Part shown: positions 19,305 through 40,277 of the stretch, in pieces | How positions within the stretch are numbered: position 1 is the stretch's first letter | Layout: each line of letters opens with the position of its first letter | Assembly (NCBI RefSeq): GCF_902826855.1 | Contig: NZ_CADEGK010000014.1 | Location: 1 to 41,756 of the forward strand | Reading direction: 5' to 3' | DNA from: an uncultured Phenylobacterium sp. | Lineage (GTDB): Bacteria > Pseudomonadota > Alphaproteobacteria > Caulobacterales > Caulobacteraceae | DNA: 41,756 nt | Program-made: the position numbers and the translations under genes | Notes under the pieces: model-generated | Told to the model about the DNA's origin: nothing | Databases searched by the model: none | What the model saw: the letters and a program-made list of their open reading frames with translations, nothing else

Positions 19305-21755
19305 ATGTCGGAGCTCTACAAGGTCGCGATCATTGGATCCGGGCCCGCCGGGCTGAGCGCGGCGGCGCACGCGGCGAAGAAGGGCCTGAGCCACATCCTG
19401 CTGGAGAAGACCGACCACCTCTCCGACACCATCTACCGCTACCAGAAGGGCAAGCACGTGATGGCGACGCCCGTCATCCTGGTGCTGCGGGCCGACGCGG
19501 ATTTCGACGCGGGCAAGCGCGAGAAGGTCCTCGATCAGTGGAACCAGGACATCGCCGCGGCCGGCGTGAACGTCAAATTCCACGCCGACGTGAAGGCGAT
19601 CACCGGCGAGAAGGGCAACTTCACCATCGAGCTGACCAAGGGCGACCCGGTCCGCGCCGAGACCATCGTCCTGGCCGTCGGCACCCAGGGCAACCCGAAC
19701 CGGATGCGCTGCGACGGCGCCAACCTACCCCACGTGCAGTACCAGCTGGACGACCCGGGCGAGTACACCGACGAACATATCTTCGTCATCGGCGGCGGTG
19801 ACGCCGGCATCGAGAATGCGCTCGGCCTGGCCGCCGACCCCGCGCAGAACAACACGGTCACCCTCGTCAACCGCGGAGCCGACTTCCCGACCGCGAAGAA
19901 GCCCAACGTCGACAACCTGTTCGCCGCCCGCGACGCCGGGCGCATGACCATCCTGACCGAGTGCAACACCAGTCTGGTGGAGCCGGGCTGGATCACGGTC
20001 GACACGCCGCAGGGGTCGTCGCGCTATAAGTGCGACCGGATCATCGCGCGGATGGGCGCCGCCCCGCCTCGGGCCTTCGTGGAAGCGGCCGGCATCGAGT
20101 TCTCCGGCCCTGACCGCACGGCCTTCCCGACCCTGTCGCCGACCTTCGAGACTACGAAGGCGGGCATCTATGTGATCGGGGCGCTGGCCGGCTACCCGCT
20201 GATCAAGCACTGCATGAACCAGGGCTACGATGTCATCGAGTTCATCACCGGCAACACCCAGCTGGAAGCCGCCGACGAACCGCTCCTGAAGGACAAGCTG
20301 AAGCACCTGCCCGGCAACCGCAGCGTCGCCGACTGGCTGGAATTCCTGCGCAGCCGCGTGGAAATCCTGAACGGCCTCTCGCCCCTGCAGATGCGGGAGT
20401 TCCTGCTCGACTCCGAGGTAAGGGCCTACAAGGCCAACGAGCCGATCTTCATCCGCAACGACACCGGCTCCTCGGTGTTCGGCATCGCGGAAGGCGCGGT
20501 CAAGGTCGAGGTCGACCCGACCAACCCGAACATCACGGTCCCGATCGGCCAGAGCTCGATCTTCGGCGAGGTGGGCCTGATCTCCGGCCGCAAGCGCGGG
20601 TCGACGATCCGTGCGTCGGAACCGACGATCTGCGTCGAAATCCCCCGCATGGCGGCGCTGAAGCTGATGAGCCAGGTGCCGGCCGCCCGCGAGGCCGTGC
20701 AGCGGATCACCACCGAGCGCCAGGTGCTGCAGATCTTCAAGTCAGGCCTGACCCCCGCCGACATCACCGACGTGCTGGCCGGCGCCGAGGTGATCGACGT
20801 GAAGCCCGGCGAGGCGATCATCAACGAGGGCGATATCTCGGACGACCTCTACATCATCCGCTCCGGCTCGATGATCGTGGAGAAGAACCTGGGCGGAAAG
20901 CCCGTGTTCATGTCGTACGTTCCGGCCGGCTCCTATGTCGGCGAAATGGCGATGATGGAGCGTACGCCGCGCTCGACGACCGTGAAGGCGGCGATCCGCT
21001 CCACTGTCGTTAAATTGCCCGCCGAGCCGTTCCGGGCGCTGCTGGGCCGCAAGCCCGAGCTCGCCAAGCGCATGCAGACCGAAATGCGGGCGCGCCAGGA
21101 GATCAACGCGTTCATCGAGAGCCAGAAGGAGGAGTTCGGCGGCGCGGTCGACATGTACTCCTCGGTCGCCAACTTCCTGATCAAACAGGGGATCGGCGAG
21201 GCCACCGACGTGCTGCTGATCGACGAGAGTCTGTGTGTCGGCTGCGACAACTGCGAGAAGGCCTGCGCAGACAGCCACGACGGCCTCAGCCGTCTGAACC
21301 GCGAGGCCGGCACCACCTTCGCCAACATCCACGTGCCGACCTCGTGCCGCCACTGCGAGCAACCGCATTGCATGGCCGACTGTCCGCCCAACGCCATTCG
21401 GCGGGGCCCCGACGGCGAGGTGTTCATCAATGAGACCTGCATCGGCTGCGGCAACTGCCAGCGGGCCTGTCCCTACGGTGTGATCCAGATGGACAAGCCG
21501 CCGCCGAAGAAGCCCAGCCTGGTGGAATGGATGCTGTTCGGCCGTGGACCGGGACCGGGCCAGCCGGACAACGAATGGCGCAAGAAGGCGGCCAAGGCCG
21601 GTGGCGCCGAATCGCCGAAGCTGGCGATCAAGTGCGACATGTGTTCAGGCAAGGCCGGGGGCCCCGCCTGCGTGCGGGCGTGCCCGACGGGGGCGGCGAT
21701 CCGGGTGACACCCGACGCCTTCCTCTCGGTGGCCAGGATTGAGAGGACCGCGTAG
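19305..21755 (+). CDS. FAD/NAD(P) oxidoreductase - double cNMP-binding - four-cluster ferredoxin fusion
   Basis: An 816-residue cytosolic protein in three parts. Residues 1-330 are a thioredoxin-reductase-like flavoprotein with the FAD motif GSGPAG (11-16) and NAD(P) motif GGGDAG (163-168). The CxxC redox pair of true thioredoxin reductases is absent. Residues 360-590 hold two cyclic-nucleotide-binding domains, with phosphate-binding cassettes FGEVGLISGRKRGST (420-434) and GEMAMMERTPRSTT (546-559). Residues 640-795 have sixteen cysteines in the NrfC/DmsB pattern: CxxCxxCxxxC from 644, CxxCx4CxxxC from 681, CxxCxxCxxxC from 712, and CxxCx8CxxxC from 777. This implies four [4Fe-4S] clusters. 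Inferred role: moving electrons between NAD(P)H and the membrane protein encoded 3 bp downstream, under cyclic-nucleotide control. Confidence 0.88.
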   Translation: MSELYKVAIIGSGPAGLSAAAHAAKKGLSHILLEKTDHLSDTIYRYQKGKHVMATPVILVLRADADFDAGKREKVLDQWNQDIAAAGVNVKFHADVKAITGEKGNFTIELTKGDPVRAETIVLAVGTQGNPNRMRCDGANLPHVQYQLDDPGEYTDEHIFVIGGGDAGIENALGLAADPAQNNTVTLVNRGADFPTAKKPNVDNLFAARDAGRMTILTECNTSLVEPGWITVDTPQGSSRYKCDRIIARMGAAPPRAFVEAAGIEFSGPDRTAFPTLSPTFETTKAGIYVIGALAGYPLIKHCMNQGYDVIEFITGNTQLEAADEPLLKDKLKHLPGNRSVADWLEFLRSRVEILNGLSPLQMREFLLDSEVRAYKANEPIFIRNDTGSSVFGIAEGAVKVEVDPTNPNITVPIGQSSIFGEVGLISGRKRGSTIRASEPTICVEIPRMAALKLMSQVPAAREAVQRITTERQVLQIFKSGLTPADITDVLAGAEVIDVKPGEAIINEGDISDDLYIIRSGSMIVEKNLGGKPVFMSYVPAGSYVGEMAMMERTPRSTTVKAAIRSTVVKLPAEPFRALLGRKPELAKRMQTEMRARQEINAFIESQKEEFGGAVDMYSSVANFLIKQGIGEATDVLLIDESLCVGCDNCEKACADSHDGLSRLNREAGTTFANIHVPTSCRHCEQPHCMADCPPNAIRRGPDGEVFINETCIGCGNCQRACPYGVIQMDKPPPKKPSLVEWMLFGRGPGPGQPDNEWRKKAAKAGGAESPKLAIKCDMCSGKAGGPACVRACPTGAAIRVTPDAFLSVARIERTA

Positions 21756-21758
21756 GTC

Positions 21759-22637
21759 GTGACACACGCCGGGGGGCATACGGAACGAGTGAAGCAGCGG
21801 ACCCACGAGGGGTTCCTGCGGCATAAGCATTTCATGTTCGCGCAGATCGCCACCGCGCTCTGCGTGGTCGCGGTCGGCGTCTATTTCTTCACCGCAGCGA
21901 GCCTCGACGAGCCGCCCAGCGGCGGCAGCTGGATCGGCTACATACTGGGCACGATCAGCGCCGGGCTGATCGTCTGGCTGGCCTGCCTCGGCATCCGCAA
22001 GCGGGTGATCACCTCCGGCCACTACTCGCTGAAGGCGTGGGTTTCCGCGCATGTCTATCTCGGCCTGTCGCTGACGGTGCTGGCCACCCTGCACACCGGC
22101 TTCCAGTTCGGCTGGAATATCCACACCCTGGCCTACGTGCTGATGATGCTGGTCATCGTCTCGGGGGCCCTGGGCATCTGGGCCTACGCCACCCTGCCGC
22201 AGCGCCTGCATGGCAACCGGGGCGAGACCACGCGCAAGCAGATGCTGGAGAGCATCGAGAGCCTGGACCGCCAGATGCACGACGTGGCCCAGCCCCTGGA
22301 CCGGGCCGGCGCCGAGCTGGCGCGGATGTCCATCGAGGACACGGAATTGGGCGGCGGCTTCTGGACGCGGCTCACCAACGGCTATGGAAACTGCGCGAAC
22401 AGGCGGGCCGCGGCGAGGCTGCGCGCCCTGCCCCCGGCATCGAACCCGGCGCAAGCGGAAGCCCTGACCAAGCTGGAGCAGCTCATGCAGCAGAAGGCCG
22501 AGGTCCTGGCCCTGGCGCGGCGGCAGATGCAGATCACCGCCTTCCTGGAGGGGTGGCTGTTCGTGCACATCCCGGCCACCTTCGCCCTTCTGGCGGCGCT
22601 CACGGCGCACATCGCCAGCGTCTTTGCGTACTGGTGA
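21759..22637 (+). CDS. Five-helix membrane protein with a diheme cytochrome b pattern
   Basis: A 292-residue integral membrane protein with helices near residues 26-46, 57-78, 94-112, 122-143 and 265-290. His98 and His112 lie 14 residues apart in helix 3. His270 and His284 lie 14 apart in helix 5. That is the arrangement that holds two stacked b haems in cytochrome b-type proteins. His122 is a further candidate. A charged helical domain (about 155-260) sits between helices 4 and 5. The GTG at 21759 follows the previous stop by 3 bp. A GTG at 21789 (KQRTHEGF) is an alternative start. It is placed between a ferredoxin-type donor and a periplasmic decaheme protein, so it is the natural transmembrane electron carrier. 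The family name is not known to me. Confidence 0.8.
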   Translation: MTHAGGHTERVKQRTHEGFLRHKHFMFAQIATALCVVAVGVYFFTAASLDEPPSGGSWIGYILGTISAGLIVWLACLGIRKRVITSGHYSLKAWVSAHVYLGLSLTVLATLHTGFQFGWNIHTLAYVLMMLVIVSGALGIWAYATLPQRLHGNRGETTRKQMLESIESLDRQMHDVAQPLDRAGAELARMSIEDTELGGGFWTRLTNGYGNCANRRAAARLRALPPASNPAQAEALTKLEQLMQQKAEVLALARRQMQITAFLEGWLFVHIPATFALLAALTAHIASVFAYW

Positions 22638-22641
22638 GCCG

Positions 22642-24516
22642 GTGGCCCAAGAATTCCATCTCAAACTGATCACCGAGCGCGCCGGCGGCGGCGATCCCAT
22701 CGTCCGCGAGCGGCAGCTGCCCGGACCGGAGCTCAGCATCGGCCGCGCGGCCGACAGCGGCATCGTCCTCACCGACCTGACGATCGATCCGCAGCACGCC
22801 AAGATGCGCTTCTCCGGCCCGGGCCGGATCACGCTGGAATCCGTCAGCGGGCGTCCATTCCTGGTCGGCGGCCGTCCGGTGCAACGGGCCGACATCGACG
22901 TGGCCAGCCGCCCGCAGGTGGAGTTCGCGAGCTATCGGCTCGCCTTCGAGCCTGGCCCGGACGGCGGCGCCGTCGTCACCGTCACCCACGCCGAGCACGA
23001 GAGCCACGCTACGCCGAAGGTCTTCTCGCTGCAGTCGAAGGTGTTCGGCCGGCGCAAGATGGCCTGGGTGTTCGGCTCCGGCATCTTCGTGATCTGCCTG
23101 CTCATCCCGCTGCTGTTCGCCGGATTGCTGTCTCAGTCGAAGATCCATCCGGACCAGCAGTGGTCCACCGGACCCCTGTCGAAGTCGCATGCCTTCCTCG
23201 AGACCGACTGCAAGTCGTGTCACGCCAAGTCGTTCGTCGCCGTGCGCGACGAGTCCTGCAAGTCCTGCCACCAGGCCAGCCACGACCCTGCGGCCCAGGC
23301 CAAGGTCCTCGCCAAGGCCCGGGACGGGGGCAGCCCCTATCGCCCCACCCTGATCTTCGATCACGCCGATCCGAAGAAGCTGAGCCAGTCCGCCCCCCTG
23401 CCCGATGGGTTCGGCGCGAAGGTCACCACGATCGTTCAGCGGACGCTGGGCCATCCGACCGACCGCTGCGCCAGCTGCCACATCGAGCACACCAAGGTCA
23501 CTCCCCCGGCAAAGGGCGGGGACCCGAAGGCGCCGCTGGCCGACAAGCCCAAGATGGTCGTGGTCAACGACTGCGAGAGCTGCCACTCGAAACTGAAGAC
23601 GCGGCTGGGCAAGACCGAGCTGATCGATACGCCGGACTGGAACCGCCACCCGGCCTTCCGCCCGCTGATCATGACCTCGGCCGAGGGCGTGAAGCCGACG
23701 TTCCAGCGGATGGCTCTGACCGGGGCGCCGCAGGAGCGGAACGGCCTGATCTTCCCGCACCGCATGCACCTCGATCCGCTGGGTGGGGTCGCCAAGCAGG
23801 CCATCGGCCTTGGCGCGGCGCGCGGCTATGGCGCCGCCCTGGAGTGCGAGTCCTGCCACCGTCCCGACGCGACCGGTCGCAGCTTCCAACCCATCCAGAT
23901 GGAGAAGGACTGCGGCAGCTGCCACAGCCTGGCCTACGCGCGCGTCGGCAGCGAGTTGCGCCTCTATCCACATGGCGAGGTCGAGAAGACCATGATGATC
24001 GCCGGCGGCGGGAGCATGGGCGGTTCGAACCGTGTCCGGCCCGGCACCGCGCGGCCCACGCCCCTGCCAGGGACCGCCCCGCCGTCGGCGGTGAGCGGCT
24101 CGCCGTTCCGCCCGGGCGGCGCCTGCTTCGACTGCCACACCATCACCTGGACGCCCGAGGGACGGCCCAGCGTGCAGGCGGTGAAACTCACCACCAGCTA
24201 CATGCCACGCGGCGCCTTCGACCACGCGACGCCCGAGCACGGCGGTCCGGGGCAGTCCAAGGCCGGCGGTTACAAATGCGCCGACTGTCACAAGGCGGCG
24301 GTCTCCGACCGGACCTCCGATGTCCTGGTGCCCGACATCGCCAAGTGCAACGCCTGCCACGGCCAGCCGAAGACCAAGACGGCCGCGGCCAGCGACGGCG
24401 AGTGCGCGACCTGCCACAGCTTCCACGCGCCCGGGAAGGCGACGCCCAAGCCCGGTCATCCGCCGCTGGAGACGTTGCGCTGGAGCCAGATAACCGCCGG
24501 GAAGGCCCCGGGGTAA
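22642..24516 (+). CDS. FHA domain - membrane helix - decaheme cytochrome c
   Basis: A 624-residue protein. Residues 5-105 form a forkhead-associated domain, with SIGRAADSGIVLTDLTIDPQHAKM carrying the conserved Gly-Arg and His. The usual Ser of the phosphothreonine pocket (SxxH) is replaced by Asp-Pro. One membrane helix spans about 141-163. After it come ten CxxCH haem sites, with first cysteines at 190, 206, 276, 311, 402, 424, 495, 546, 569 and 588. The FHA part should be cytoplasmic and the haem part periplasmic. I chose GTG 22642, 4 bp after the previous stop. An upstream TTG would overlap that gene. It should receive or donate electrons in the periplasm. Fusion of FHA to a multihaem cytochrome is rare and its purpose is unknown. 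Confidence 0.87.
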   Translation: MAQEFHLKLITERAGGGDPIVRERQLPGPELSIGRAADSGIVLTDLTIDPQHAKMRFSGPGRITLESVSGRPFLVGGRPVQRADIDVASRPQVEFASYRLAFEPGPDGGAVVTVTHAEHESHATPKVFSLQSKVFGRRKMAWVFGSGIFVICLLIPLLFAGLLSQSKIHPDQQWSTGPLSKSHAFLETDCKSCHAKSFVAVRDESCKSCHQASHDPAAQAKVLAKARDGGSPYRPTLIFDHADPKKLSQSAPLPDGFGAKVTTIVQRTLGHPTDRCASCHIEHTKVTPPAKGGDPKAPLADKPKMVVVNDCESCHSKLKTRLGKTELIDTPDWNRHPAFRPLIMTSAEGVKPTFQRMALTGAPQERNGLIFPHRMHLDPLGGVAKQAIGLGAARGYGAALECESCHRPDATGRSFQPIQMEKDCGSCHSLAYARVGSELRLYPHGEVEKTMMIAGGGSMGGSNRVRPGTARPTPLPGTAPPSAVSGSPFRPGGACFDCHTITWTPEGRPSVQAVKLTTSYMPRGAFDHATPEHGGPGQSKAGGYKCADCHKAAVSDRTSDVLVPDIAKCNACHGQPKTKTAAASDGECATCHSFHAPGKATPKPGHPPLETLRWSQITAGKAPG

Positions 24517-29373: not shown

Positions 29374-30207
29374 TTGCTAACGATCGCTCAGATCACCGAC
29401 CTCCACGTGACGACGGAGAAGGACCCGCTGAACCAGCGGCGTAACGAAACCCGTCTGCGCCAGGTGCTGAACACGATCCATGGCCTGCGCCCCCGCCCCG
29501 TCGCCATCATCGCCTCCGGCGACCTGATCGACCGCGGCGAGAAGGAAGAGTACGACGAGCTCAAGCGAGTGATGGCCAAGTGCGAAATCCCGGTGCTCTA
29601 CGCGCTAGGAAACCACGATGGCCGGGACACCTTCCTCGAAGTCTTCCCTGAGTACCGCGACAAGCTCGATGAGCACGGGTTCCTGCAGTACGTCGTCGAC
29701 TATCCGGGCGTGCGGCTGGTGATCTGCGATACGCTCGAGGGGCCGAACGAGGGCGAGTACGACGAACCCCGCGCGGCGTGGCTGGCCAAGACGCTGGACG
29801 AGGCGCCGGACACTCCCACCTGCGTCGTCCTGCATCACCCACCGATCCCGAGCGGCATCCGCTGGATGGACCCAGACCCAAGCTCACCCTGGATTTCGCG
29901 CCTGCATCAGGTGCTGACCGGCCGCGAGCAGGTGAAGATGATACTGTGCGGCCACATCCACCGGGCGTTCTCCGGCATCTTCGCGGGCCATGCGCTGCTG
30001 GCCGCACCCGCCACCTCGATCCAACTCACCCTCGACCTCACCGAGGTCGACATGCACACGCCGGACGGCCGCGAGATCCTCGTTGAGGAACCGCCCGGCT
30101 TCGCTCTGCTGATGGCCCAGGACGGTGACCTGACCAGCCACATCTGCCTGGCAGGCTCCTACAAGCCGGCGGTCACCTACAACTTCCCGTTCCGAAAGCA
30201 AGCCTGA
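29374..30207 (+). CDS. CpdA-like 3',5'-cyclic nucleotide phosphodiesterase
   Basis: A 277-residue calcineurin-like phosphoesterase resembling CpdA, which hydrolyses cAMP. Metal ligands appear as TDLH (8-11), SGDLIDRG (about 48-55), GNHD (about 81-84), LHHPP and CGHIHRAF. The start is a TTG at 29374 with GGGGAGG 8 bp upstream. No nearby ATG gives the complete first metal motif. It is followed 3 bp later by an adenylate cyclase gene, so synthesis and breakdown of cAMP are probably encoded together. Substrate specificity is inferred from this pairing and from family resemblance. General class III phosphodiesterases can act on other phosphoesters. Confidence 0.83.
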   Translation: MLTIAQITDLHVTTEKDPLNQRRNETRLRQVLNTIHGLRPRPVAIIASGDLIDRGEKEEYDELKRVMAKCEIPVLYALGNHDGRDTFLEVFPEYRDKLDEHGFLQYVVDYPGVRLVICDTLEGPNEGEYDEPRAAWLAKTLDEAPDTPTCVVLHHPPIPSGIRWMDPDPSSPWISRLHQVLTGREQVKMILCGHIHRAFSGIFAGHALLAAPATSIQLTLDLTEVDMHTPDGREILVEEPPGFALLMAQDGDLTSHICLAGSYKPAVTYNFPFRKQA

Positions 30208-30210: not shown

Positions 30211-32100
30211 ATGCCGGGGACGCGGCGGGGGATAATGGGCGCTGTTGCCGGCGGCCTCGCGCGCCTGCGGGCGGTCGGCGGCAAGACCTGGGCGGACGCG
30301 ATCGTCGTCGCCGGCGTGGCCCTGGCGTCCATGGCCGCGGCGCTCGCCCTCAACCAGACCACCCCGATCCGCTTCGTGGAGAACCTGACCTACGACCTGC
30401 GCCTGTCGGCCGGCGCGCCGGCGGCCAAGCCGGACTTCGTGATCATCAAGATCGACGACGCGGCGACAAACGCCATGGCCGAGGCCTCGCCGTGCCACTG
30501 CCTGGCGCCAATCAACAAGGCCTGGCTGGGCGACCTGATCGCCACGCTGGATGCGCGCGGCGCGAAGGTGATCGTCGTCGACTACCTGCTCGACACCTGG
30601 GAGCCCGGCCCGTCCGGAGGCCAGCTCGACAGTCCGGAGTTCGCGGACTTCGAGAAGCGGATCGCCGGCGTCAAGGCGCCCATCGTGGTGGCCGTCGATC
30701 CGAACCGGACACCCGGCGTCGACTATCCGGTCTCCAAGAAGCTGCGCTATTCCGATGCGCGCGCGTTGACTCACTCCGACTACGACGACGTCATCCGCAA
30801 GTACGACGCGAAGCCGGGGAAGTTCTATTCTCTGGCTGGCGAAGCCCAGTTGGCCGCCACCGGCAAGGCGCCGCCACCCGGCACCTTCGCGATCCGCTAC
30901 CGCCAGCCCGACAAGGACGCCCAGGCGGAGAACGCCGGCTCGATCAGCCCCGCCTTCTCCGCCGCGTTCGCCGAATTCGCGCCGGCCGACAAGCTGAAGG
31001 ACAAGATCGCGTTTATCGGCAGCAATACCCGCGCCGCGACGGTTGATTCCGACACGCCCAAGGAGGACATGCACTCAACCCCGCTGCGCTTCCAACCGGG
31101 CCATCAGCAGGGCACGCCCGGCGTGGAAGTGCATGTACACGCGCTGTCGCAGATGCTGGATGGCGACCGGGTAAAGACGCCCGGCTGGCTGTGGGACGCG
31201 GTCGTCGTGCTGGCGGCCGCGCTAGGCGGCGCGATGATGGGCCGCTCGACGCAGAAGTGGTGGATGTCGATCGGCATCCTGTTCCTCTTCCTGGCCGGCG
31301 GCGCGGTGGTCTCCTATCTTGCCTACGAGCGCTTCGCCCTGATGCTGCCGATGGCGGCTCCGGCCATCGCCTTCGCGTTCGGCTTCTTCGTCCTCTCGCG
31401 GCTGGCGGCGGCTGACCTCCAGAACCAGCGGGCGTTCTATTCCTCCACGCTCGAGCGCTACCTGGCCCCACAGGTGATCGACCGCATGGTCGACGGGCGC
31501 GAGGAGGTGAAGATCGGCGCCGAAGAGCGCGAGATCACGGTGATGATCTCGGACCTGGAGAACTTTTCCAACCTGGTGGCCAGCCTCGACCTGGAGACCT
31601 TCGAAGGGGTCATCAACGAGTATTTCGACGGAATCATCGACCTCCTGTGGAAGCATGAGGCGATGATCGACAAGATGACCGGCGACGGCATCATCGCCAT
31701 CTTCGGCGCGCCGGTGCCCTCCGAGGACCACGCCGACCGCGCCCTCGCCTGCTGCCGCGAGATCGACACCTACGCCCTGGAAATCCGCCAGAAGATGATC
31801 GCCCGCGGAATCAACTTCGGCTACACGCGCATGGGCGTCTCATCGGGCATCGGCCTGGTCGGCAACTTCGGCGGCGAGCGGCGCTTCAACTACACGGCCT
31901 ATGGCGAGGTGGTGGTGATCGCCGCGCGCCTCGAAGCCGCCAACAAGACCTTCGGCACGCGCATACTGTTCTCCGGCGATACGCTGAAGCTCGCCAAGCG
32001 CCACGTCCCCATCGAGGCGGTCGGCGAGATCGACCTGAAGGGCGTCCCGGTGCCGATCCCAGCCTACACCACGCCGGTGGAACCGCCCGTCGAGGCGTAG
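30211..32100 (+). CDS. CHASE2-domain class III adenylate cyclase
   Basis: A 629-residue inner-membrane receptor cyclase. The order is a helix near 29-47, a periplasmic CHASE2 sensor (about 50-315), three helices (about 326-395) and a class III cyclase domain (about 430-610). Both metal aspartates are present, in MISDLENFS and KMTGDGIIAIFG, with the substrate Lys next to the second. The purine-selecting Thr lies in NYTAYG, as in class IIIb cyclases. In the following segment, GEVVVIAARLE, the transition-state Asn usually found in GDxVNxAAR is Val, while the Arg is kept. Activity may therefore be altered. CHASE2 ligands are unknown. It pairs with the CpdA-like gene, and its product could act on the cNMP domains encoded at 19305-21755. 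Confidence 0.9.
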   Translation: MPGTRRGIMGAVAGGLARLRAVGGKTWADAIVVAGVALASMAAALALNQTTPIRFVENLTYDLRLSAGAPAAKPDFVIIKIDDAATNAMAEASPCHCLAPINKAWLGDLIATLDARGAKVIVVDYLLDTWEPGPSGGQLDSPEFADFEKRIAGVKAPIVVAVDPNRTPGVDYPVSKKLRYSDARALTHSDYDDVIRKYDAKPGKFYSLAGEAQLAATGKAPPPGTFAIRYRQPDKDAQAENAGSISPAFSAAFAEFAPADKLKDKIAFIGSNTRAATVDSDTPKEDMHSTPLRFQPGHQQGTPGVEVHVHALSQMLDGDRVKTPGWLWDAVVVLAAALGGAMMGRSTQKWWMSIGILFLFLAGGAVVSYLAYERFALMLPMAAPAIAFAFGFFVLSRLAAADLQNQRAFYSSTLERYLAPQVIDRMVDGREEVKIGAEEREITVMISDLENFSNLVASLDLETFEGVINEYFDGIIDLLWKHEAMIDKMTGDGIIAIFGAPVPSEDHADRALACCREIDTYALEIRQKMIARGINFGYTRMGVSSGIGLVGNFGGERRFNYTAYGEVVVIAARLEAANKTFGTRILFSGDTLKLAKRHVPIEAVGEIDLKGVPVPIPAYTTPVEPPVEA

Positions 32101-32375: not shown

Positions 32376-35300
32376 CTACCGCCCCGCCATCGACCTGGGC
32401 AGGATCTTCGGGCCCAGCCAGGCCTGCATGTCCGGGGCATCGGTCACGCGGTAGGGGCGGCCCCAGGCGTCGGTGAAGAAGCGGGCCATCTCGTCGCGGC
32501 TGAGGGGGCGTGAGCCCAGGCGGCCGAAGATGGCGATCTGGCCGCCGGTCTCGTCCACCGCCCGGTCGCGGTCCAGGCCCTTGGAGAGCGCCACGGCCGG
32601 CGACGGGGTCTTCACCCAGCCGATCAGCTCCGGCTTGGGGGCCGGCGAGAAGCCGTAGAAGTTGGGCTGGCTAACCGGGCTGGTCAGTTGCAGCACCTTC
32701 AGACCGTTCCTGCCGTCGGCGACGTAGGCGAACAGCGAGGCGTTGGTCGAGCCCACGATGACATCCTCGGCGTCGTTGAGCTGCCCACCGGCGTCGAACT
32801 TCTGGTAGATGCGCGGCCGCTCCGGGTTCTTCACGTCGACGATGACGAGGCCGTCCTTCTTGGCCGCCACGTAGGCATAGGTGCGGGCCACGTAGACGCG
32901 GCGCGCGTCGACCAGCGGGATCGTGGCGCCCTCGACCAACCGCGGCTGGGCCAGGTTGGTGACGTCCAGGACCTCCAGGCCGCGGGCGGTAGTGACCCAC
33001 AGGTAGCGGAACTGCAGGGCCGAGCCGCGCACATCGGCGAGCGGGACGGTGGCGGCGAGCGCCGGGGCGAGCGGGTTCTTCAGGTCCACCACCACCAGGC
33101 CGGCGTCCGCGGCGATGTAGGCGTAATGCCCGCCCAGGGTGATATGGCGCGCGCCCTTCAGCACCCCGCCGGGGTTCCAGGTCACCGCGCGCTTGAGGTT
33201 GTTGTTGCGCGGGTCACCGTCGGCCAGGGTATTCACGTTGACCAGGATCAGGCCTTCCTCGCTGTCGGTGATCACCGCGTACGAGTAGATCGCCAGGAAC
33301 TCCTGCTCCTGATTGGCCTGCAGAAGGCTCTGCTCGCCGTCCTTCAGGGGCATGCCCTGGGCGTTCAGCCGCTGCATGTGTTCGTTGCGCAACGGCGCGA
33401 TCGACTGGTTGGTCGGCAGCGCCATGCAGGTGGCGTTCTTGGTGGCCACGCGGGTGTCGTTGCGCAGCGCCGAGAACGGCGCGGTGATGACCGGCTGCGA
33501 GATCGACTTGTTGGCGATGCTTGCCACGTCGTAGGCGCGGAAGCCGCCCTTCCCGCTCGCCACGTACATGTACTCGCCACGCAGCTGCAGGCAGCGCGAT
33601 GCGCCATCGGTCTTATGGACGACGTTGCGGATATACTCCGCGGAGTCCTCCTCGCCGCCCTTCAAGCCGTCCACGAACGGCTTGCCGCGCACCCAGGTCT
33701 TCAGCTCCCGGCCGTTCTCCTCGTGGGCCTTGTAGTAGTCGGGATAGGCATACTTGTGCAGGTAGGAGCCGAACACCGCCTGCGGTTCGCCCCACTCGGA
33801 GACGCGGACCGCCTCGATAGCGCTTTCCAGGCCGACCCAGGCGTTCTGGCCCACGAAGTTGACGTAGTTGGTCCCCAGCAGCAGCAGCTGCGCCATGATG
33901 GCGTTGTTGTCGTTGTCGGCGGAGACGTGGCAGTCCGAGCAGGTCTTGGTTTCAGTTGTGCGCACCGTATGCGGGAAGTGCGGAGCGAACGCCTGGCTGG
34001 AGAAGCCCGAGGCGGCGATCGGCGGCTGCTGCACGTAGATCCGCTCGCGGTTCACGTTCGTCGAGGACAGCACCAGGGCTGACGACGAGCGGATGGGCGC
34101 GATGGTCCAGCCCTTGGTGGTCTGGTGCTTGCCCAGCTGGAACATGTCGTCGCGGGCCACCTGCGGATTGTAGGTGGCGTAGTTCCGCGTCTCCTCGCCC
34201 TCGAACTTGTGGCTCTTGGTCTTCCAGTTGGCCTCGATCGGCAGATGGCAACCGGCGCACGCCGTGGTCCACGAGGTGTGGCAGGCGAAGCATTCCATGT
34301 TGTCTTCGGTGTGGGCGCGGTCGCTGGCCGGCACACCGGGACCCCAGGTCATCGGCTTGCCGTTCTGGCTGATCTTCGACACCAGCTTGGCGCGCGCGGA
34401 CTTGGCGTTGAAGTCGGGGTGCGTTGGATCGACCGTGTCCTTGGTCAGGTGGATGCGCCACTCCAGGTTCGGGTCGAGCAGCGAGCGCTGGACCAGCACC
34501 TGGCGGCCCTCACGCTCCACCCACTCGAAGCGGCGCTGACCATCGGGGTTGCGCAGCAGGGTGAGGTCGTTGCCCTTGGGACTGGCCGCGGGACCGGACG
34601 TGCGCAGCGTCGGATAGGCCGAGGTGGTGCCGTGGCAGTCGCGGCAGCGGATCTCCACCGCGTTGGCGACTTCACCCATGATCAGGCCAGAGCCGTGGCT
34701 GTCCTGGGCGAAGTGGCAGTCGGCGCACTGCATGCCCTTCTCGGCGTGGATGTCCATCATATGGACCGCCTTGCCGTCGTTCAGCTTGGGATCCTCACCG
34801 AGCGGGTCGGGGCCCGGCTTGTCGGTCTTCGGATAGAGCTCCTTCGGCCATTTGGCCGGACCCTGGGCGGTGACGATGTCGCCCTTGCGGTCGAGCAGGT
34901 TGCCTTCGCGGTCACGCTTGAAGATGCCGCGGAAGTTCCAGCCGTGGCCATGGTAGTCGGCGAACTGGGTGTCGTTCAGCTTGGAGTTCAGGTCGAACAC
35001 ATTGCGCAGGAAGTCCAGGTCGGCCCAGTTACCCTTGGGCGCCGCGCCCTCGGGGTTGCGATCCAGGACGTGGCGCACCTCCTCCGTGGTCGGGTACTTC
35101 TGCTTCTCGGGCCACATGAACGGAGCGTCGGCTTCGTAGTCCCACATCGTGTAGCCGAGGTAGGTGTTCACGAACATGTTCGGCTGGTGCATGTGGCAGT
35201 TCATGCACTGGGCGGTCGGGATGGCGCGCGTGAACGCGTGCTTGATCGGGTGGCCTGACTCTTCCTTGTTGATGGTCGGGTCGTCGGTGAAGCTTTTGCC

Positions 35301-36380
35301 GTCACGGCCGTACTTGGCCCAGGTCAGGCTGGCGTGCACCTGGCGGTTGTTCGCATAGACCACGTGGCAGGATGCGCACCCGGAAGAGCGGTAATCGCCG
35401 GGCTGGTCGTTGGTGCCCAGGAACCAGGTGAAGGGGTCGTTCAGGCGGGTCTTGTGGATGTTGAGCAGCGGGATCGCCACGCGCAGCCCGGTGCCGGGCC
35501 CGCGGTTCGACTGCTTCAGGTCGGGCCGGCCAGGCTCTTCCAGGCGCTGGATCTGGCCCAGGGAATTCGGCAGCCCCACCTCGGCGAACTGGGTGTTGAT
35601 GTTGCGGCCGCCACGCTCGAACACGCGGAAGATGTCGCCGGGCGGCGTCACCTGCCAGGTCGGCGCGGGATAGAGGATCGGCAGGGCGCCGCGCTTGGCC
35701 TGGGCCGCCGTCACCTGCCCGGGCGGATCGCCCGGGGACTTGACCGTCGCGGGTTCGCCATGGGCCGTGTAGGCCTCGCCCAGGACGTAGTTCTTGAAGG
35801 GCAGAATGCCGTTGTTGTACGAGGCGCCGCCGAAGAACATGGCCCCGGTGGCCATCAGCGACCGCTCGGCCTTTTCGATCAGCTCCATGTGACAGGCGCC
35901 GCAGGCCTTGCGGGCCACACGATAGTCCGAGGGGTTCACGAACCGGACGAACTCCGGGCTCTCCTTGTTGAAGAGCGTGTAGCTCTGCTTCGGGTTCGCT
36001 GAGCTCGGGAAGTGCCAGGTCTTCGGATACTTGGGCAGCACATGGCCCTTGTCGCGGATTTCGGCGTACGGCTTCGACTTCGGGTCCAGGCCGGCGGGCG
36101 CGATCGCCGTGGCGTCGCCGCCGTGGCAGCTCACGCAGCCCAGCTTTACCGCGTTGGACAGGTGCATCGTCTTGGCGTCGGAGGCCGTGTGGCAGGAGAC
36201 GCAACCCACGCTGTCGGCGTCCACTTCCGCGTCGGTCATGCCGAGTTTCGCGGCCGGCGCGGAAACATAGTGGCGCTTTACCGGCTTCTCGCTCTCGGAC
36301 GCGCTCAGCGTGACAGGCACGAGCAAGGCCAGCGCCGCCAGCGCCCCCATCCTCAGCCTTTTTCCCCACGCTTTCAACAT
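32376..36380 (-). CDS. Decaheme cytochrome c fused to an LVIVD beta-propeller
   Basis: A 1334-residue exported protein. The Sec signal (about 1-28, MGALAALALLVPVTLSASES) is followed by ten CxxCH sites with first cysteines near 60, 82, 160, 335, 392, 552, 579, 697, 708 and 814. From about 930 to 1280 come LVIVD-type repeats, seen as GLILVNVNTLADG, GLVVVDLKNPLAP, GLEVLDVTNLAQP, GLVIVDVKNPERP and GLKVLQLTSP, which usually fold as a beta-propeller. Long haem-free segments separate the sites, so this is not a compact octaheme enzyme. It lies 7 bp after the beta-barrel gene and ends the operon. A TAGGGGC ribosome site precedes the ATG. Role inferred: large electron-transfer or terminal redox protein, periplasmic or surface-exposed. 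The substrate is unknown. Confidence 0.9.
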   Translation of the reverse strand: MLKAWGKRLRMGALAALALLVPVTLSASESEKPVKRHYVSAPAAKLGMTDAEVDADSVGCVSCHTASDAKTMHLSNAVKLGCVSCHGGDATAIAPAGLDPKSKPYAEIRDKGHVLPKYPKTWHFPSSANPKQSYTLFNKESPEFVRFVNPSDYRVARKACGACHMELIEKAERSLMATGAMFFGGASYNNGILPFKNYVLGEAYTAHGEPATVKSPGDPPGQVTAAQAKRGALPILYPAPTWQVTPPGDIFRVFERGGRNINTQFAEVGLPNSLGQIQRLEEPGRPDLKQSNRGPGTGLRVAIPLLNIHKTRLNDPFTWFLGTNDQPGDYRSSGCASCHVVYANNRQVHASLTWAKYGRDGKSFTDDPTINKEESGHPIKHAFTRAIPTAQCMNCHMHQPNMFVNTYLGYTMWDYEADAPFMWPEKQKYPTTEEVRHVLDRNPEGAAPKGNWADLDFLRNVFDLNSKLNDTQFADYHGHGWNFRGIFKRDREGNLLDRKGDIVTAQGPAKWPKELYPKTDKPGPDPLGEDPKLNDGKAVHMMDIHAEKGMQCADCHFAQDSHGSGLIMGEVANAVEIRCRDCHGTTSAYPTLRTSGPAASPKGNDLTLLRNPDGQRRFEWVEREGRQVLVQRSLLDPNLEWRIHLTKDTVDPTHPDFNAKSARAKLVSKISQNGKPMTWGPGVPASDRAHTEDNMECFACHTSWTTACAGCHLPIEANWKTKSHKFEGEETRNYATYNPQVARDDMFQLGKHQTTKGWTIAPIRSSSALVLSSTNVNRERIYVQQPPIAASGFSSQAFAPHFPHTVRTTETKTCSDCHVSADNDNNAIMAQLLLLGTNYVNFVGQNAWVGLESAIEAVRVSEWGEPQAVFGSYLHKYAYPDYYKAHEENGRELKTWVRGKPFVDGLKGGEEDSAEYIRNVVHKTDGASRCLQLRGEYMYVASGKGGFRAYDVASIANKSISQPVITAPFSALRNDTRVATKNATCMALPTNQSIAPLRNEHMQRLNAQGMPLKDGEQSLLQANQEQEFLAIYSYAVITDSEEGLILVNVNTLADGDPRNNNLKRAVTWNPGGVLKGARHITLGGHYAYIAADAGLVVVDLKNPLAPALAATVPLADVRGSALQFRYLWVTTARGLEVLDVTNLAQPRLVEGATIPLVDARRVYVARTYAYVAAKKDGLVIVDVKNPERPRIYQKFDAGGQLNDAEDVIVGSTNASLFAYVADGRNGLKVLQLTSPVSQPNFYGFSPAPKPELIGWVKTPSPAVALSKGLDRDRAVDETGGQIAIFGRLGSRPLSRDEMARFFTDAWGRPYRVTDAPDMQAWLGPKILPRSMAGR

Positions 36381-36387: not shown

Positions 36388-38325
36388 CTAATACGTGAAT
36401 ATGATGTTGGCCAATACCGAGTAGTAGCGCTTGTTGCGCTCTGCGTTCGCGAAGAGGTCCTTGAAGCCCTTCCCCGGATCGAATGCCGCGCCTGACAGGC
36501 GCACCACGATGTTCTGCGTCATGAACGGCCGCCAGATCGCCGACACCGAGGCGTCCCAGCCAAGCGACTTGGGAATCGACCCCTCCTGGCGTAGCGCCTG
36601 CACGGTGGCGGTGTTGGCGAAACCGAAGTGGTTGAGATTGGTCGTGATGCGAAGCTCCGGCGTCACATCGAAGTCCGCGCCGGCCCCGAAGATGACCGTG
36701 CCGGGATTGTTGAAGTTCGACTGACCTTCGTCCTTGGAGGAGCGCAGGCTGTTCAACAGGCCGTTGCGGCCATTGACCCCGATCACGCGGCCACCGCCGG
36801 CGAACGGGATCGTCTGGCGGATCCAGTAACTGGTGTCGGAGCCCACGAACTGCGGGTTCTCCTGGATCGCGTCGAACCCTCGCTCGGTGTTGTCGTAGGG
36901 GTTCTTGTCGCCGGACGCGTAGAGGCCGTTGAGGCGCACCCGGACCCAGCTGAAATCGATCGAGGGCTCGACGGCCACGAAGTAGCTGCGGATCTTCGCC
37001 TTGCGGTCGGTGAAGATCGAATTCCGGTCCTGGCCGTAGGCGTAGTAGGCCGACGCCGTCAGATTGACGCGCCCCCAGTGGCCGTCGGCATTGTAGCCGA
37101 GGTAGGTCACCTCGTAGTTGCGGCCCTTCAGGTTGCCGATCAGCGCCGGGCGCACCGGGAACCCGTTGTGGTCGATCTGGATGTCGTCGCCCTCGTGGTT
37201 GCGATTGTGCACCACGGTCAGTTGCGACGTCAGGCCCGGGATCGGCAGGTCCTGGCGGAACACGTTGGCGATGAAGACATAGTCCTCGCGCAGCTTCTGG
37301 CCGACGTCGTTGAGGCCGGAGTTGGTGTCCTTCTCGATCCGCCGGAAGACCGCCAGGTTGTACTGGAAGCGGTTGTTGTCGCGGTTACCGAACAGGCGGA
37401 CGCCCAGTTGGTTGTCCTGGAACAGGAAGCCGCGGAAGTCGGTGTTGAACGGCTGGATGCCAACCCGGATCGAATCGAAGTCGTAGCGCTCGCCGATGTT
37501 GCGCAGGTGGTAGTCGAGGAAGGCTTCCTGCAGGCCGATGAAGGCGTCGTTGCGGTGCGACGGCTTGGAGGGCTTGACGTTGAGCACCCGGCGTTCGGGC
37601 ACGTCGACGTAGTTGTACTGGCCGGCCACAGCGACGCGGAACTCGTACTCCGGCGGCTTGTAGGCCGTGGAACCCTTCACCAGCGACGCCGCGGCGATGA
37701 AGGTCTGGGCGAACACCAGACTGGTGTCCTTGCCGAACACGTCGAGGCTACCGGCCCGCTCGGTCGTCTGCACCCCCACGGGGATGGGGAAACTCCGCGG
37801 CTCGAAAACCGTGTCGGAGATCAGGCTGACGTTCAGGAACCAGTCTTCAGTGCCCTTGATGGGCAGGTCGCCCTTGAGGAAGTTCTGGTTGTACGGATCA
37901 ATCAGCCGCGGCCGTGACACGCCGAGCGCGCCCGCAAGGCGCCAGCGGTCCGGCACCGGGATCTCGTCTTTCGGGAACGCCTCGGGCGGCGGCGCGCGCA
38001 CGGCCCCCGGGTTCTCCTGCCGGATCGGAGCGGGGAACTCCTCGACGCGACCGGGCCGCCGGCGGCCGTCCAGCGGCGCGGCGTCCTGCGGCGGCGCATC
38101 GGCCGGCGAGGCGGTGACCTCGGGACCTGGCTGTTCCTGCGCCGAGGCGTCGCGGGCCGCCAAGGCTACCGACGCCGTCTGCATCGGTCCGCATGCGCGG
38201 TCCAGGATGTCGTCGATGGTCAGCGGGCGTGCGACGGCCACGGGGCCTTGCGCCGGCGCGGCCTTGGCCTGCTGTCCGGCGAGGGCGGCGATGGCGCCGA
38301 GTGCGAGGAAAGGAGCCCTGCGCAT
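36388..38325 (-). CDS. Outer-membrane beta-barrel protein of the cytochrome operon
   Basis: A 645-residue exported protein. A signal peptide (about 1-21, FLALGAIAALAGQQAKA) is followed by a Pro/Ala-rich segment to about residue 120. Amphipathic strands then run to the end, with segments such as YEFRVAVAGQYNYVDV and NLTASAYYAYGQD. The last residue is Tyr (NIIFTY), the usual barrel-insertion signal. The frame is open far upstream through the neighbouring gene, but the ATG at 38325, 2 bp past that gene's stop, gives the signal peptide. No haem motif is present. It has one N-terminal Cys rather than the CxxC seen in MtrB/PioB porins, so it is not a plain member of that family. It may be the pore of a porin-cytochrome complex. 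Confidence 0.82.
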   Translation of the reverse strand: MRRAPFLALGAIAALAGQQAKAAPAQGPVAVARPLTIDDILDRACGPMQTASVALAARDASAQEQPGPEVTASPADAPPQDAAPLDGRRRPGRVEEFPAPIRQENPGAVRAPPPEAFPKDEIPVPDRWRLAGALGVSRPRLIDPYNQNFLKGDLPIKGTEDWFLNVSLISDTVFEPRSFPIPVGVQTTERAGSLDVFGKDTSLVFAQTFIAAASLVKGSTAYKPPEYEFRVAVAGQYNYVDVPERRVLNVKPSKPSHRNDAFIGLQEAFLDYHLRNIGERYDFDSIRVGIQPFNTDFRGFLFQDNQLGVRLFGNRDNNRFQYNLAVFRRIEKDTNSGLNDVGQKLREDYVFIANVFRQDLPIPGLTSQLTVVHNRNHEGDDIQIDHNGFPVRPALIGNLKGRNYEVTYLGYNADGHWGRVNLTASAYYAYGQDRNSIFTDRKAKIRSYFVAVEPSIDFSWVRVRLNGLYASGDKNPYDNTERGFDAIQENPQFVGSDTSYWIRQTIPFAGGGRVIGVNGRNGLLNSLRSSKDEGQSNFNNPGTVIFGAGADFDVTPELRITTNLNHFGFANTATVQALRQEGSIPKSLGWDASVSAIWRPFMTQNIVVRLSGAAFDPGKGFKDLFANAERNKRYYSVLANIIFTY

Positions 38326-38327: not shown

Positions 38328-40277
38328 CTATTTGCCCTGACACACGTTCTGATCCTGGTTGTCCAGGAACGGCGCGAACGGGCAGCCCACATAGCGCAGA
38401 CGCGTGTTCGTTGGCCCGACGAGGAGCTGGTCGGCGCGCATGGCCGCCGGCGCATTGCCGATCCCGCCGGCCTTGAGACCGCCGTTGTGGGCGCCCAGGA
38501 ACGAGATCATGTCGTCCTGGTCGATGCCGTCGCCGGATACGCCGACGGCGCCGACCAACATGTTTCCGCGGAATAGCGGCACCGACCCGGAGAAGATCTG
38601 CAGACCGTTCTGCAGGCGGTTCTGGCCCGGCGCGACCTGCGGCAGGTTGGTGCAGACACCCGGGGTGTCGGTGGCCGTCGCCCCGGAGATGAAGCCCAGG
38701 TGCGCACCGAGATTGTTGATGATCAGCGCCGACTGCAGCCCCGTCGACAGCGGGCTCCACAGGGTGATCGGCCGCGAGAATGGCCCGTTCGGCCGCCCAA
38801 CCTCGCCGTCCGGGAAATAGGGCCGCGCCAGGTTGCCGATCGACTTGGCGCCGAAGGCGGTCTTGCCGGTCAGGAAGACGGGATCGGGAATGAAGTCCCG
38901 CGCCCGCTGCACGAACAAGCGTACGTCGGCATCCGGGTTCGCCAGCAACTCGGCGCCGGCCGTGGGCGCCGACAGCAGGGCCACCGTACGCGCCTTCTGG
39001 GCGGAGACGTCGATGCCGAAGATCGGCGCATCGGGAGCCCGAACCAGGCCCAGGATCTGGCCGCGGCTGTCCACCACGGTGATCGAAACCTGGGCGCGGC
39101 TGTCCAGCGGCCGGCGGATCTGGCCGCGCGCGCGGCTCATGATCGTGAAGGCTTCTTCGAGCACCGCACGCACCTCGGCGGCGGTGAGCGGGGCGATACC
39201 GTCGGCGCCGTCGGTGCCCGCGCGGATCGGGAAGCGGTTCTGGCCCGAGCCGTCGGAGAGGACCATCGAGCTCGGGATCGAGAACTCGGCGCTGGTGGCG
39301 AGGCGCAGGCCAGAGGCCTCCGTGCCGTAGACGACGCCCGGCAGGGCGCCGCCCCCGGCGTAGTAGCCGGTGACGGCCGTGAACGCGCCGGCGCCCCCCG
39401 GCAGGCTCGCGAAGGTCGGCGCGCTGGCCGGCGTGGTCCGGAGCGTCGCGGCGGTCACGTCGGTGTAGCGCAGCGTCGTGCCGTCCACCGTGATCCGGTT
39501 GGCCTGCTGTTCGCGAGGGGCTTCGAAGCCGATGGTCCCGGCGATGGCGATCGCCTCTTCGGCGTCGTCCTCGACGTCCAGGATGTTGGTGTCGAACCCG
39601 TAGTCGTTGTCGCCGACGACGCCGATGCCGCCCACCAGCACGCCGTTCTTGTAGAGCGGGAAGCCGCCGGGGTCCGCCGACAGGCCGAGCGGCGAGCGGC
39701 GCGGCCCGACCGAGGCGTTGGCCACCCGCGTGACGACGTCCGAGCACGGCAGCTGCGAGAACTGGACCCCGAACAGCGGGCCCGCCTCCAGCCCGACCGT
39801 CGTCGGCGCGGGCGGGAAGTGCTCCTGGACGATCTGACTGGCCGTGCGGGTCGAGAAGGCATTGCCGCCCGAAGAAGACAGGTAAGCCCCGGTGATCGCC
39901 TTGGCGATAGCCGCGCCAGCTGCCGGCACGGGCAGGCCCTGCGCGTCCGTGTTGACGCCCGTGGGCCCGCGTCGGGTCACCGTCGTCGCCCGCGCCCCGG
40001 CCATGGAATAGACGGCCAACACGTTGCCGGGCCGGTCGGTCACGGCGATCACAACCGGCAGGTTGCGCGCCCTCGCTTCGGCCACGGCCTGGGCGATCAC
40101 CTGCTCCACGTCGGCGACGCTGAGCGCCTGCGCGCCCGGCAGGGTATACGCCCCCTGGGGCGGGGGCGGCGCGGGCGGAGGGGCGGTGGGAACGCTGCTG
40201 TTCGTCCCGCCTCCGCCGCCGCAGGAGACCAGCGCCAAAGCGGCCACGAACACGGCCAGACGCGACGCCGACATCAT
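38328..40277 (-). CDS. Lipoprotein with two HbpS/GlcG-type haem-binding domains
   Basis: A 649-residue lipoprotein with lipobox LVSC (Cys about residue 19), then a Gly and Pro-rich linker. Two copies of the GlcG/HbpS fold (PF03928) are seen. One starts at LSVADVEQVIAQAVAEARA (about 53) with VVIAVTDRPGNVLAVYSM. The other starts at LTAAEVRAVLEEAF (about 355) with VSITVVDSRGQILGLVRAP. Family members such as HbpS bind haem or iron at the cell surface. It overlaps the pentaheme gene by 4 bp (ATGA) and is followed 2 bp later by the barrel gene. It probably sits on the outer membrane with the cytochromes, but its exact role is unknown. Confidence 0.82.
   Translation of the reverse strand: MMSASRLAVFVAALALVSCGGGGGTNSSVPTAPPPAPPPPQGAYTLPGAQALSVADVEQVIAQAVAEARARNLPVVIAVTDRPGNVLAVYSMAGARATTVTRRGPTGVNTDAQGLPVPAAGAAIAKAITGAYLSSSGGNAFSTRTASQIVQEHFPPAPTTVGLEAGPLFGVQFSQLPCSDVVTRVANASVGPRRSPLGLSADPGGFPLYKNGVLVGGIGVVGDNDYGFDTNILDVEDDAEEAIAIAGTIGFEAPREQQANRITVDGTTLRYTDVTAATLRTTPASAPTFASLPGGAGAFTAVTGYYAGGGALPGVVYGTEASGLRLATSAEFSIPSSMVLSDGSGQNRFPIRAGTDGADGIAPLTAAEVRAVLEEAFTIMSRARGQIRRPLDSRAQVSITVVDSRGQILGLVRAPDAPIFGIDVSAQKARTVALLSAPTAGAELLANPDADVRLFVQRARDFIPDPVFLTGKTAFGAKSIGNLARPYFPDGEVGRPNGPFSRPITLWSPLSTGLQSALIINNLGAHLGFISGATATDTPGVCTNLPQVAPGQNRLQNGLQIFSGSVPLFRGNMLVGAVGVSGDGIDQDDMISFLGAHNGGLKAGGIGNAPAAMRADQLLVGPTNTRLRYVGCPFAPFLDNQDQNVCQGK

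What the first reader, a model, noticed from the sequence alone, without database searches (positions are those of the whole stretch)
19305..24516. Undescribed three-gene transmembrane redox module under possible cyclic-nucleotide control
Three adjacent genes (gaps of 3 and 4 bp) encode an NAD(P)/FAD-cNMP-cNMP-four [4Fe-4S] protein, a diheme b-type membrane protein and an FHA-anchored periplasmic decaheme cytochrome. Together they form a complete wire from NAD(P)H to the periplasm. Motifs are read directly. The wiring is inference from domain knowledge of NrfC/DmsB ferredoxins and cytochrome b. I know of no characterised system with this composition.
Basis: partly seen in the sequence, partly recalled or inferred. 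Interest (0 to 1): 0.93.

Follow-up and report, generated by a model that had tools for sequence, protein, structure and literature searches.

The report
Cyclic-nucleotide-linked electron export line in bacteria
This stretch encodes a conserved but uncharacterised set of proteins that looks like a wire carrying electrons from the cell's fuel (NADPH) across the inner membrane and perhaps on to the outside, with built-in domains and neighbouring enzymes suggesting that a signalling nucleotide such as cAMP switches it on and off.

Summary
Three adjacent genes encode (1) a YpdA-like NAD(P)H/FAD protein with two cyclic-nucleotide-binding (CNB) domains and 16 cluster cysteines, (2) a membrane protein with two His pairs 14 residues apart, probably b-type, and (3) an FHA-TM-decahaem cytochrome. 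Among the 80 best GTDB loci, genes 1 and 3 flank gene 2 wherever the locus is long enough to show it. Genes 1 and 2 are fused in two related genomes. All 16 cysteines and both CNB arginines are invariant in 96 orthologues.

A calcineurin-type phosphodiesterase is in 73 of 76 testable loci. A CHASE2 class III cyclase adjoins it in the window's close relatives. A second block (decahaem LVIVD cytochrome, outer-membrane-type barrel, HbpS-like protein) tracks the triplet: 20 of 289 alphaproteobacterial genomes have the barrel, all among the 27 with a strong gene 2.

Best reading: a NADPH-to-periplasm, possibly to-outer-surface, electron exporter gated by a cyclic nucleotide. Direction, ligand and outer-membrane crossing are inferred. 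Against: the window cyclase lacks the catalytic Asn, the phosphodiesterase scores best as 2',3'-specific, and the gene 2 model has no significant structural match.

The parts
19305..21755 (+). Gene 1: cytoplasmic NAD(P)H/FAD (YpdA-like) - CNB - CNB - four [4Fe-4S] protein, 816 aa
   Evidence: Pfam/NCBIfam; residue conservation in 96 orthologues
20562..20606 (+). Phosphate-binding cassette of CNB1 (residues 420-434, FGEVGLISGRKRGST)
   Evidence: G421, E422, L425, R431 in 96 of 96
20796..21047 (+). CNB2 (residues 498-581)
   Evidence: Pfam PF00027; G546 96/96, E547 95/96, R556 96/96
21216..21695 (+). NrfC/DmsB-type ferredoxin domain, 16 Cys (residues 638-797)
   Evidence: 16 of 16 Cys in 96 of 96
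21759..22637 (+). Gene 2: probably b-type membrane protein, invariant H98/H112 and H270/H284 (also H122)
   Evidence: alignments A2, A6; model helices 91-113 and 230-291; Pfam by member
22642..24516 (+). Gene 3: N-terminal FHA, one TM helix, periplasmic decahaem domain (alternative TTG start 22624)
29374..30207 (+). Calcineurin-like phosphodiesterase (SpdA/CpdA/Rv0805/GpdQ relatives)
   Evidence: same strand as gene 3 in 73 of 73
30211..32100 (+). CHASE2 + class III nucleotide cyclase, 3 bp after the phosphodiesterase; catalytic Asn replaced by Val
32376..36380 (-). Decahaem cytochrome with LVIVD repeats and a signal-like N-terminus, 1334 aa
   Evidence: 10 CXXCH in 25 of 25 complete orthologues
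36388..38325 (-). Outer-membrane-type beta-barrel, about 18 long strands in a low-confidence model, 645 aa
   Evidence: model and Foldseek; co-occurrence
38328..40277 (-). HbpS-like protein, no CXXCH; lipobox LVSC in the window copy
   Evidence: lipobox pattern in only 3 of 13 rows
40274..41674 (-). Cytochrome c554-like tetrahaem protein (peripheral member)
   Evidence: relatives near the triplet in L141-L143
15007..19171 (-). Divergent cytochrome c maturation genes: CcmI-type TPR and CcmF by Pfam; DsbE/CcmH-like by eye
   Evidence: CcmI-type match upstream in 58 of 64 and CcmF in 17 of 64 loci with full upstream flank

Best explanation
The triplet is the inner-membrane part of a conserved electron-export line. 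NAD(P)H (the NADPH preference is inferred) reduces FAD in gene 1. Electrons pass through four [4Fe-4S] clusters to two haems b stacked across the membrane in gene 2, then to the ten haems of gene 3. Its FHA domain docks it on the cytoplasmic side and its haem domain lies in the periplasm. In most alphaproteobacterial carriers sampled (20 of 27), electrons could then reach a second decahaem cytochrome, an outer-membrane barrel and an HbpS-like protein, and so an acceptor at or beyond the outer membrane. Moving electrons outwards drains NADPH and membrane potential, so the pathway needs a valve. The tandem CNB domains between the flavin and the ferredoxin parts are proposed as that valve, set by a local cyclase and phosphodiesterase. 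Shown: gene content, motif conservation, synteny, one fusion, co-occurrence. Inferred: haem loading, electron order and direction, ligand, gating, the outer-membrane crossing.
For: Adjacency of genes 1-3 in 74/74 and 76/76 testable loci of the 80 kept. Gene 1-gene 2 fusion in one ORF in G481 and G372. Invariant cofactor and CNB residues in 96 orthologues. Barrel present in exactly the 9 of 60 relatives that carry the triplet, and in 20 of 289 class genomes, all among the 27 with gene 2 at E up to 1e-50 (Fisher values, not corrected for kinship). Genes 1-3 + HbpS + barrel + second decahaem cytochrome on one strand in order in 10 of 20 distant loci. Phosphodiesterase in 73 of 76 loci, same strand as gene 3 in 73 of 73, starting within 300 bp of its stop in 54 of 73. 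Triplet-cyclase-phosphodiesterase contiguous in L086.
Against: The window-type cyclase has Val for the catalytic Asn in 10 of 18 rows examined. The phosphodiesterase's best NCBIfam model is the 2',3'-cNMP enzyme SpdA, below cut-off. Three of 76 near loci and 17 of 20 distant loci (L127-L143) show no phosphodiesterase above 100 bits. Foldseek found no significant match for the gene 2 model. The barrel model is weak overall (pLDDT 55), and its best match AlgE has TM 0.42/0.60, rmsd 9 A. Seven of 27 gene-2 carriers in the class, and 3 of 4 genomes tested outside it, have no barrel. The second block is often not close: of 70 near loci with full downstream flank, the second decahaem was seen in 28, the barrel in 20, HbpS in 14. 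In G055 and G539 the barrel lies far from the triplet. The lipobox is in 3 of 13 HbpS rows. No biochemical data.
Confidence: 0.58

Rival explanations
1. Same wire run inwards: the cytochromes take electrons from an outside donor (Fe(II), Mn(II), a cathode) and gene 1 makes NAD(P)H.
For: PMC10734462 (passages seen) notes evidence that Mto/Mtr conduits can be reversible, and lists a ten-haem 'Forkhead-associated protein' cluster in 27 of 87 iron-oxidising Gallionellaceae genomes.
Against: The named carriers among the 80 kept are mostly Sphingomonadales and Caulobacterales, which I recall as aerobic heterotrophs. I saw no energy source for the uphill step to NAD(P)+ in the cluster.
Confidence: 0.15
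2. Periplasmic or outer-membrane reductase for a specific substrate (e.g. a metalloid oxyanion, ferric iron or haem), not a general conduit; the second decahaem cytochrome is the terminal enzyme.
For: The second decahaem protein weakly resembles ExtM of selenite/tellurite operons (77 bits, cut-off 800) and the neighbour is HbpS-like.
Against: No CXXCK haem motif in 25 orthologues; other catalytic haem signatures were not looked for. The ExtM match is local and far below cut-off.
Confidence: 0.17
3. The CNB domains are structural or bind no cyclic nucleotide; the phosphodiesterase and cyclase are neighbours with another job.
For: Window cyclase lacks the catalytic Asn. Phosphodiesterase not found in 17 of 20 distant loci. 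G050 and G058 carry the phosphodiesterase and a cyclase about 1.4 kb apart on opposite strands without full-length gene 1.
Against: Glu and Arg of both phosphate-binding cassettes are 95-96 of 96. Cyclases with the Asn (VNLASR) exist in other loci, one contiguous with the triplet and phosphodiesterase in L086.
Confidence: 0.3

Closest known systems
Mtr/Mto and other porin-cytochrome conduits
   Same: Inner-membrane electron donor, periplasmic decahaem cytochrome, outer-membrane-type barrel and a second multihaem cytochrome encoded together in many carriers
   Different: No MtrA/DmsE or MtrC/OmcA family match above cut-off and no MtrB-type Pfam match. The barrel model has about 18 strands and matches AlgE best. 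The input is NAD(P)H through a soluble flavo-Fe-S arm, not quinol (inferred); CNB and FHA domains added
NADPH oxidase / ferric reductase (NOX/FRE)
   Same: Cytoplasmic NAD(P)H-FAD domain feeding two haems b held by two His pairs about 14 residues apart (NOX spacing recalled), with outward electron flow
   Different: Flavin domain is YpdA/TrxR-like, not FNR-like. Four Fe-S clusters and two CNBs intervene. Electrons would go to decahaem c, not O2
YpdA/Bdr bacillithiol disulfide reductase
   Same: Sequence family of the FAD/NADPH domain
   Different: Bdr active-site Cys (recalled) is Ala in 83 and Cys in 1 of 96. 131.8 bits against a 339.9 cut-off
ExtM (selenite/tellurite reduction operon)
   Same: Multihaem stretch similar to the second decahaem protein
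   Different: 77 bits against an 800 cut-off, best stretch only about 55 residues
'Forkhead-associated protein', 10 haem motifs, Gallionellaceae cluster 403 (PMC10734462 Table 1)
   Same: Name and motif count point to the same domain pair (FHA + ten haems) as gene 3; sequences not compared here
   Different: Only a table row under 'Other' in the passages seen; no partner genes or function given there

Membership tests
Mtr/Mto porin-cytochrome complex | MtrA/DmsE-family decahaem (TIGR03508) and MtrC/OmcA family (TIGR03507) | tested here: not met
   Only sub-cut-off hits for the two - strand cytochromes, 16-18 bits against 192-209; none for gene 3
Mtr/Mto porin-cytochrome complex | MtrB-type wide barrel | tested here: not met
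   No Pfam hit in the window protein; of 26 members only 1 hits a relevant family, Alginate_exp. Foldseek best is AlgE. Model is low confidence
NOX/ferric reductase | PF01794 transmembrane domain with two His pairs | tested here: inconclusive
   8 of 50 gene-2 members hit PF01794 at E up to 0.1, 39 of 50 hit PF01292. His pairs invariant in 50. No significant Foldseek match
YpdA/Bdr | Active-site Cys in the GGGPCG motif (motif recalled) | tested here: not met
   GSGPAG in the window; A 83, G 8, S 4, C 1 of 96
Cyclic-nucleotide effector (CNB) | Phosphate-binding cassette with G-E and R (roles recalled) | tested here: met
   Both domains, 95-96 of 96
Cyclic-nucleotide effector (CNB) | Binds cAMP or cGMP | not testable with these tools
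   Needs a binding assay
FHA phosphothreonine reader | GR and the Ser of the binding loop (motif recalled) | tested here: inconclusive
   G40, R41 96/96, but the Ser position is D/E/N/S/T mixed, S only 10 of 96
Class III nucleotide cyclase | PF00211 domain above cut-off | tested here: met
   44.9 bits, cut-off 21.9
Class III nucleotide cyclase | Complete catalytic set including the transition-state Asn (roles recalled) | tested here: not met
   Window: DKMTGD present, Asn replaced by Val (YTAYGEVVVIAAR). VNLASR in L067, L072, L078, L086, L101
3',5'-cAMP phosphodiesterase CpdA | NCBIfam NF008359 cut-off 225 bits | tested here: not met
   100.8 bits; SpdA model 131 against 400

The most novel reading that the evidence does not exclude
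A second-messenger-gated electron line. A cyclic nucleotide made and destroyed by cluster-encoded enzymes binds tandem CNB domains inside the dehydrogenase itself and opens or shuts electron flow from NADPH through two membranes, in a large set of alphaproteobacteria that I recall as aerobes not known for extracellular electron transfer.
Probability: 0.35. Interest if true: 0.92.

Novelty: new variant of a known kind. Interest (0 to 1): 0.82.

Why it matters
In an even sample of the class, 27 of 289 genomes have a strong gene 2. If the reading is right, a sizeable group of soil and water bacteria has a NADPH-driven electron exporter that the papers I could search do not name. It would also be, as far as I know, the first electron-transport chain gated directly by a cyclic nucleotide rather than through transcription. 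The claim is testable in culturable, non-pathogenic species with standard haem stains, binding assays and NADPH assays.

Tried and rejected
Rejected: thiol-disulfide reductase, because the Bdr Cys is absent in 95 of 96. Chance adjacency. A phage or mainly plasmid-borne module: no confirmed hit in one viral scan, and 12 of 72,556 plasmid records hold at least 80% of gene 1, all Sphingobium. A simple CRP/FNR promoter site: none by exact pattern in 19172-19305. CXXCK haems: none in 25 second-decahaem and 96 gene-3 rows.

Led nowhere: Foldseek of the gene 2 model. Profile search of PDB sequences: none for the barrel; for gene 2 seven rows at E 0.057-0.72, mostly ATP synthase b, taken as noise. Alignment A4 of fused and separate proteins looked misaligned from its summary and was not used. 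PMC4999443 and PMC9226611 were checked by passages only and look unrelated. Paper searches showed no description of the system; several listed only the top 15 of many (15 of 415, 15 of 296), the rest were not seen, and the library holds only open-licence PMC papers. TAL-effector rows have no passing stretch and were ignored.

Rows dropped: clustering used ORFs of 90 aa or more, with conservation-based choice among overlaps. Orthologue counts come from 102 sequences (window, L019, L044-L143); kept are rows of at least 90 bits complete within the locus: 96 gene 1, 96 gene 3, 78 phosphodiesterase, 18 cyclase, 25 second decahaem, 13 HbpS. The 20 distant loci (L124-L143, from 19 genomes) were chosen by me among hits, not drawn at random. 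A five-motif regex matched 58 of 78 phosphodiesterases; the 20 misses were not followed up. First-pass regexes for the CNB cassettes matched 89 and 87 of 96; the column counts replaced them.

Full report
WHAT IS THERE. Gene 1 is a YpdA-like pyridine-nucleotide/FAD domain (PDB relatives 7a7b, named Bdr, and 7a76, named thioredoxin reductase), two CNB domains and a ferredoxin region like HydN, DmsB, NrfC and HycB. Gene 2 is membrane-bound. Gene 3 has FHA, one strong TM segment (residues 145-174, preceded by RRK, so FHA inside by the positive-inside rule) and ten CXXCH. Outside the ten haem motifs, nine further His are conserved in 91-96 of 96 gene-3 orthologues, as expected for bis-His haems.

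CONSERVATION. In 60 related genomes, full-length gene 1 occurs in 9 including the window's. Genes 2 and 3 follow it in all 8 of the others. In those, gene 1 precedes gene 2 in 74 of 74 loci with more than 2 kb upstream, and gene 3 follows in 76 of 76 with more than 1.8 kb downstream. In the other direction, of 10 gene-1 places found in 299 phylum genomes at E up to 1e-60, 9 have gene 2 next door; the exception is a second copy in G347 (L043/L138). One class locus (L026) has a weak c554-like match, not gene 1, directly upstream of gene 2. In G481 and G372 (same genus, so probably one event) genes 1 and 2 are one ORF, which suggests physical contact.

MOTIFS. Over 96 orthologues: FAD glycines 96/96; 16 Fe-S cysteines 96/96; CNB1 G/E/R 96/96 each; CNB2 G 96, E 95, R 96; R190 (candidate NADPH contact, inferred) 93. 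Gene 2: H98, H112, H122, H270 and H284 invariant in 50 members. The two pairs are each 14 apart, on model helices 91-113 and 230-291. That spacing is the one I recall for cytochrome b and NOX. Against: Foldseek gave no significant match and Pfam support is weak.

A LARGER SYSTEM. The window continues with a calcineurin-type phosphodiesterase, a CHASE2-cyclase 3 bp later, then on the other strand a decahaem LVIVD cytochrome, a barrel, an HbpS-like protein and a tetrahaem c554. In 10 of 20 distant loci, HbpS-barrel-decahaem follow the triplet on its own strand (L127-L135, L143); in L136 HbpS and barrel follow and the contig ends just after the barrel. Among 70 near loci with full downstream flank, the second decahaem was seen in 28, the barrel in 20, HbpS in 14 and c554 in 2, so the blocks are often apart. 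The window barrel has no Pfam match. Its model has 18 long strands and matches AlgE best (E 3e-14, TM 0.42/0.60, rmsd 9 A), followed by other porins; mean pLDDT is 55. I read it as an outer-membrane barrel, not as proof of an AlgE relative or of a cytochrome-holding pore. Its distribution is telling: 9 of 60 relatives, exactly the 9 with the triplet; 20 of 289 class genomes, all within the 27 having gene 2 at E up to 1e-50. The 14 further genomes with weaker gene-2 matches (41 in all at E up to 0.001) are not among the 20. Seven strong gene-2 genomes lack the barrel, as do G347, G372 and G481 outside the class, while G482, G539 and G582 have it. So in these samples the barrel never occurs without the triplet's gene 2, but not the reverse. 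Fisher values 7e-11 and 3e-25 ignore kinship.

CYCLIC NUCLEOTIDE LINK. The phosphodiesterase is within the locus in 73 of 76 (absent in L056, L087, L096), on gene 3's strand in 73 of 73, and 54 of these start within 300 bp of gene 3's stop. Among 60 relatives it occurs in 8 of the 9 triplet genomes (not G039) plus G050 and G058, at E up to 1e-25. It was not found above 100 bits in distant loci L127-L143. A cyclase match above 150 bits lies somewhere in 16 of the 70 loci with full downstream flank. Of the 16 phosphodiesterase-cyclase pairs measured, 15 lie within 142 bp on the same strand, all among L044-L059, the loci nearest the window; the sixteenth (L077) is 10 kb off and opposite. The order triplet-cyclase-phosphodiesterase is contiguous in L086, cyclase-phosphodiesterase recurs 3.8-6 kb past gene 3 in the Brevundimonas loci L067 and L072, and in G055 the order is cyclase-phosphodiesterase-triplet. 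The window genome has 7 class III cyclase hits, so chance presence of one within 10 kb is a few percent (my estimate). Caveats: the window-type cyclase has Val at the catalytic Asn (10 of 18 rows), whereas L067, L072, L078, L086 and L101 have Asn; three rows could not be read this way or lack the Lys motif. The phosphodiesterase scores best with SpdA, which PMC4222275 (title, search listing only)',3'-specific.

MECHANISM. Electrons moving from NADPH inside to haem c outside go downhill in potential and along the membrane field. Such a path would drain both NADPH and proton-motive force, which gives a reason for an allosteric valve. This is inference from general bioenergetics. NOX is the nearest functional analogue for the inner part and Mtr-type conduits for the outer part. 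It does not meet the Mtr tests above, and the NOX test is inconclusive. Divergent ccm genes beside it (CcmI-type match in 58 of 64 loci) fit a need for c-haem attachment.

NOVELTY. No description was seen in ten searches of open PMC papers, several of which listed only their top rows. The closest print trace is one row in Table 1 of PMC10734462: 'Forkhead-associated protein', 10 motifs, 27 of 87 Gallionellaceae (passages seen). I rate the system a new variant of a known kind (transmembrane/extracellular electron conduits), with the gating idea as the bold part.

Noticed in passing
L019 (NZ_CP020539.1, plasmid pMSHV, Sphingobium herbicidovorans): The triplet, phosphodiesterase, second decahaem, barrel and HbpS gene lie together on a 959 kb plasmid that PLSDB types as conjugative; 12 Sphingobium plasmid records carry gene 1.
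   Followed up: partly
G050 and G058 (C2 in each): Phosphodiesterase with a cyclase about 1.4 kb away on the opposite strand and no full-length gene 1, suggesting these two can act apart from the redox genes.
   Followed up: no
L138 (G347 C17): A second full-length gene-1 copy with no gene 2 or 3 found beside it.
   Followed up: no
window 24676-29318: Glutamate dehydrogenase-like, acetolactate-synthase-like and aldehyde-dehydrogenase-like genes (named by eye) sit between gene 3 and the phosphodiesterase in the window and its nearest loci; they look like an insertion into the cluster.
   Followed up: partly
L127, L132, L133, L134 (cluster 12): A small protein of about 150 aa with a signal-like start, unknown, recurs between gene 3 and the HbpS gene.
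   Followed up: no
L141-L143: Tetrahaem c554-like genes near the triplet; in L141 and L142 (G119, G111) with no barrel found in the locus or, at E up to 1e-20, the genome: possibly an alternative electron acceptor set.
   Followed up: no
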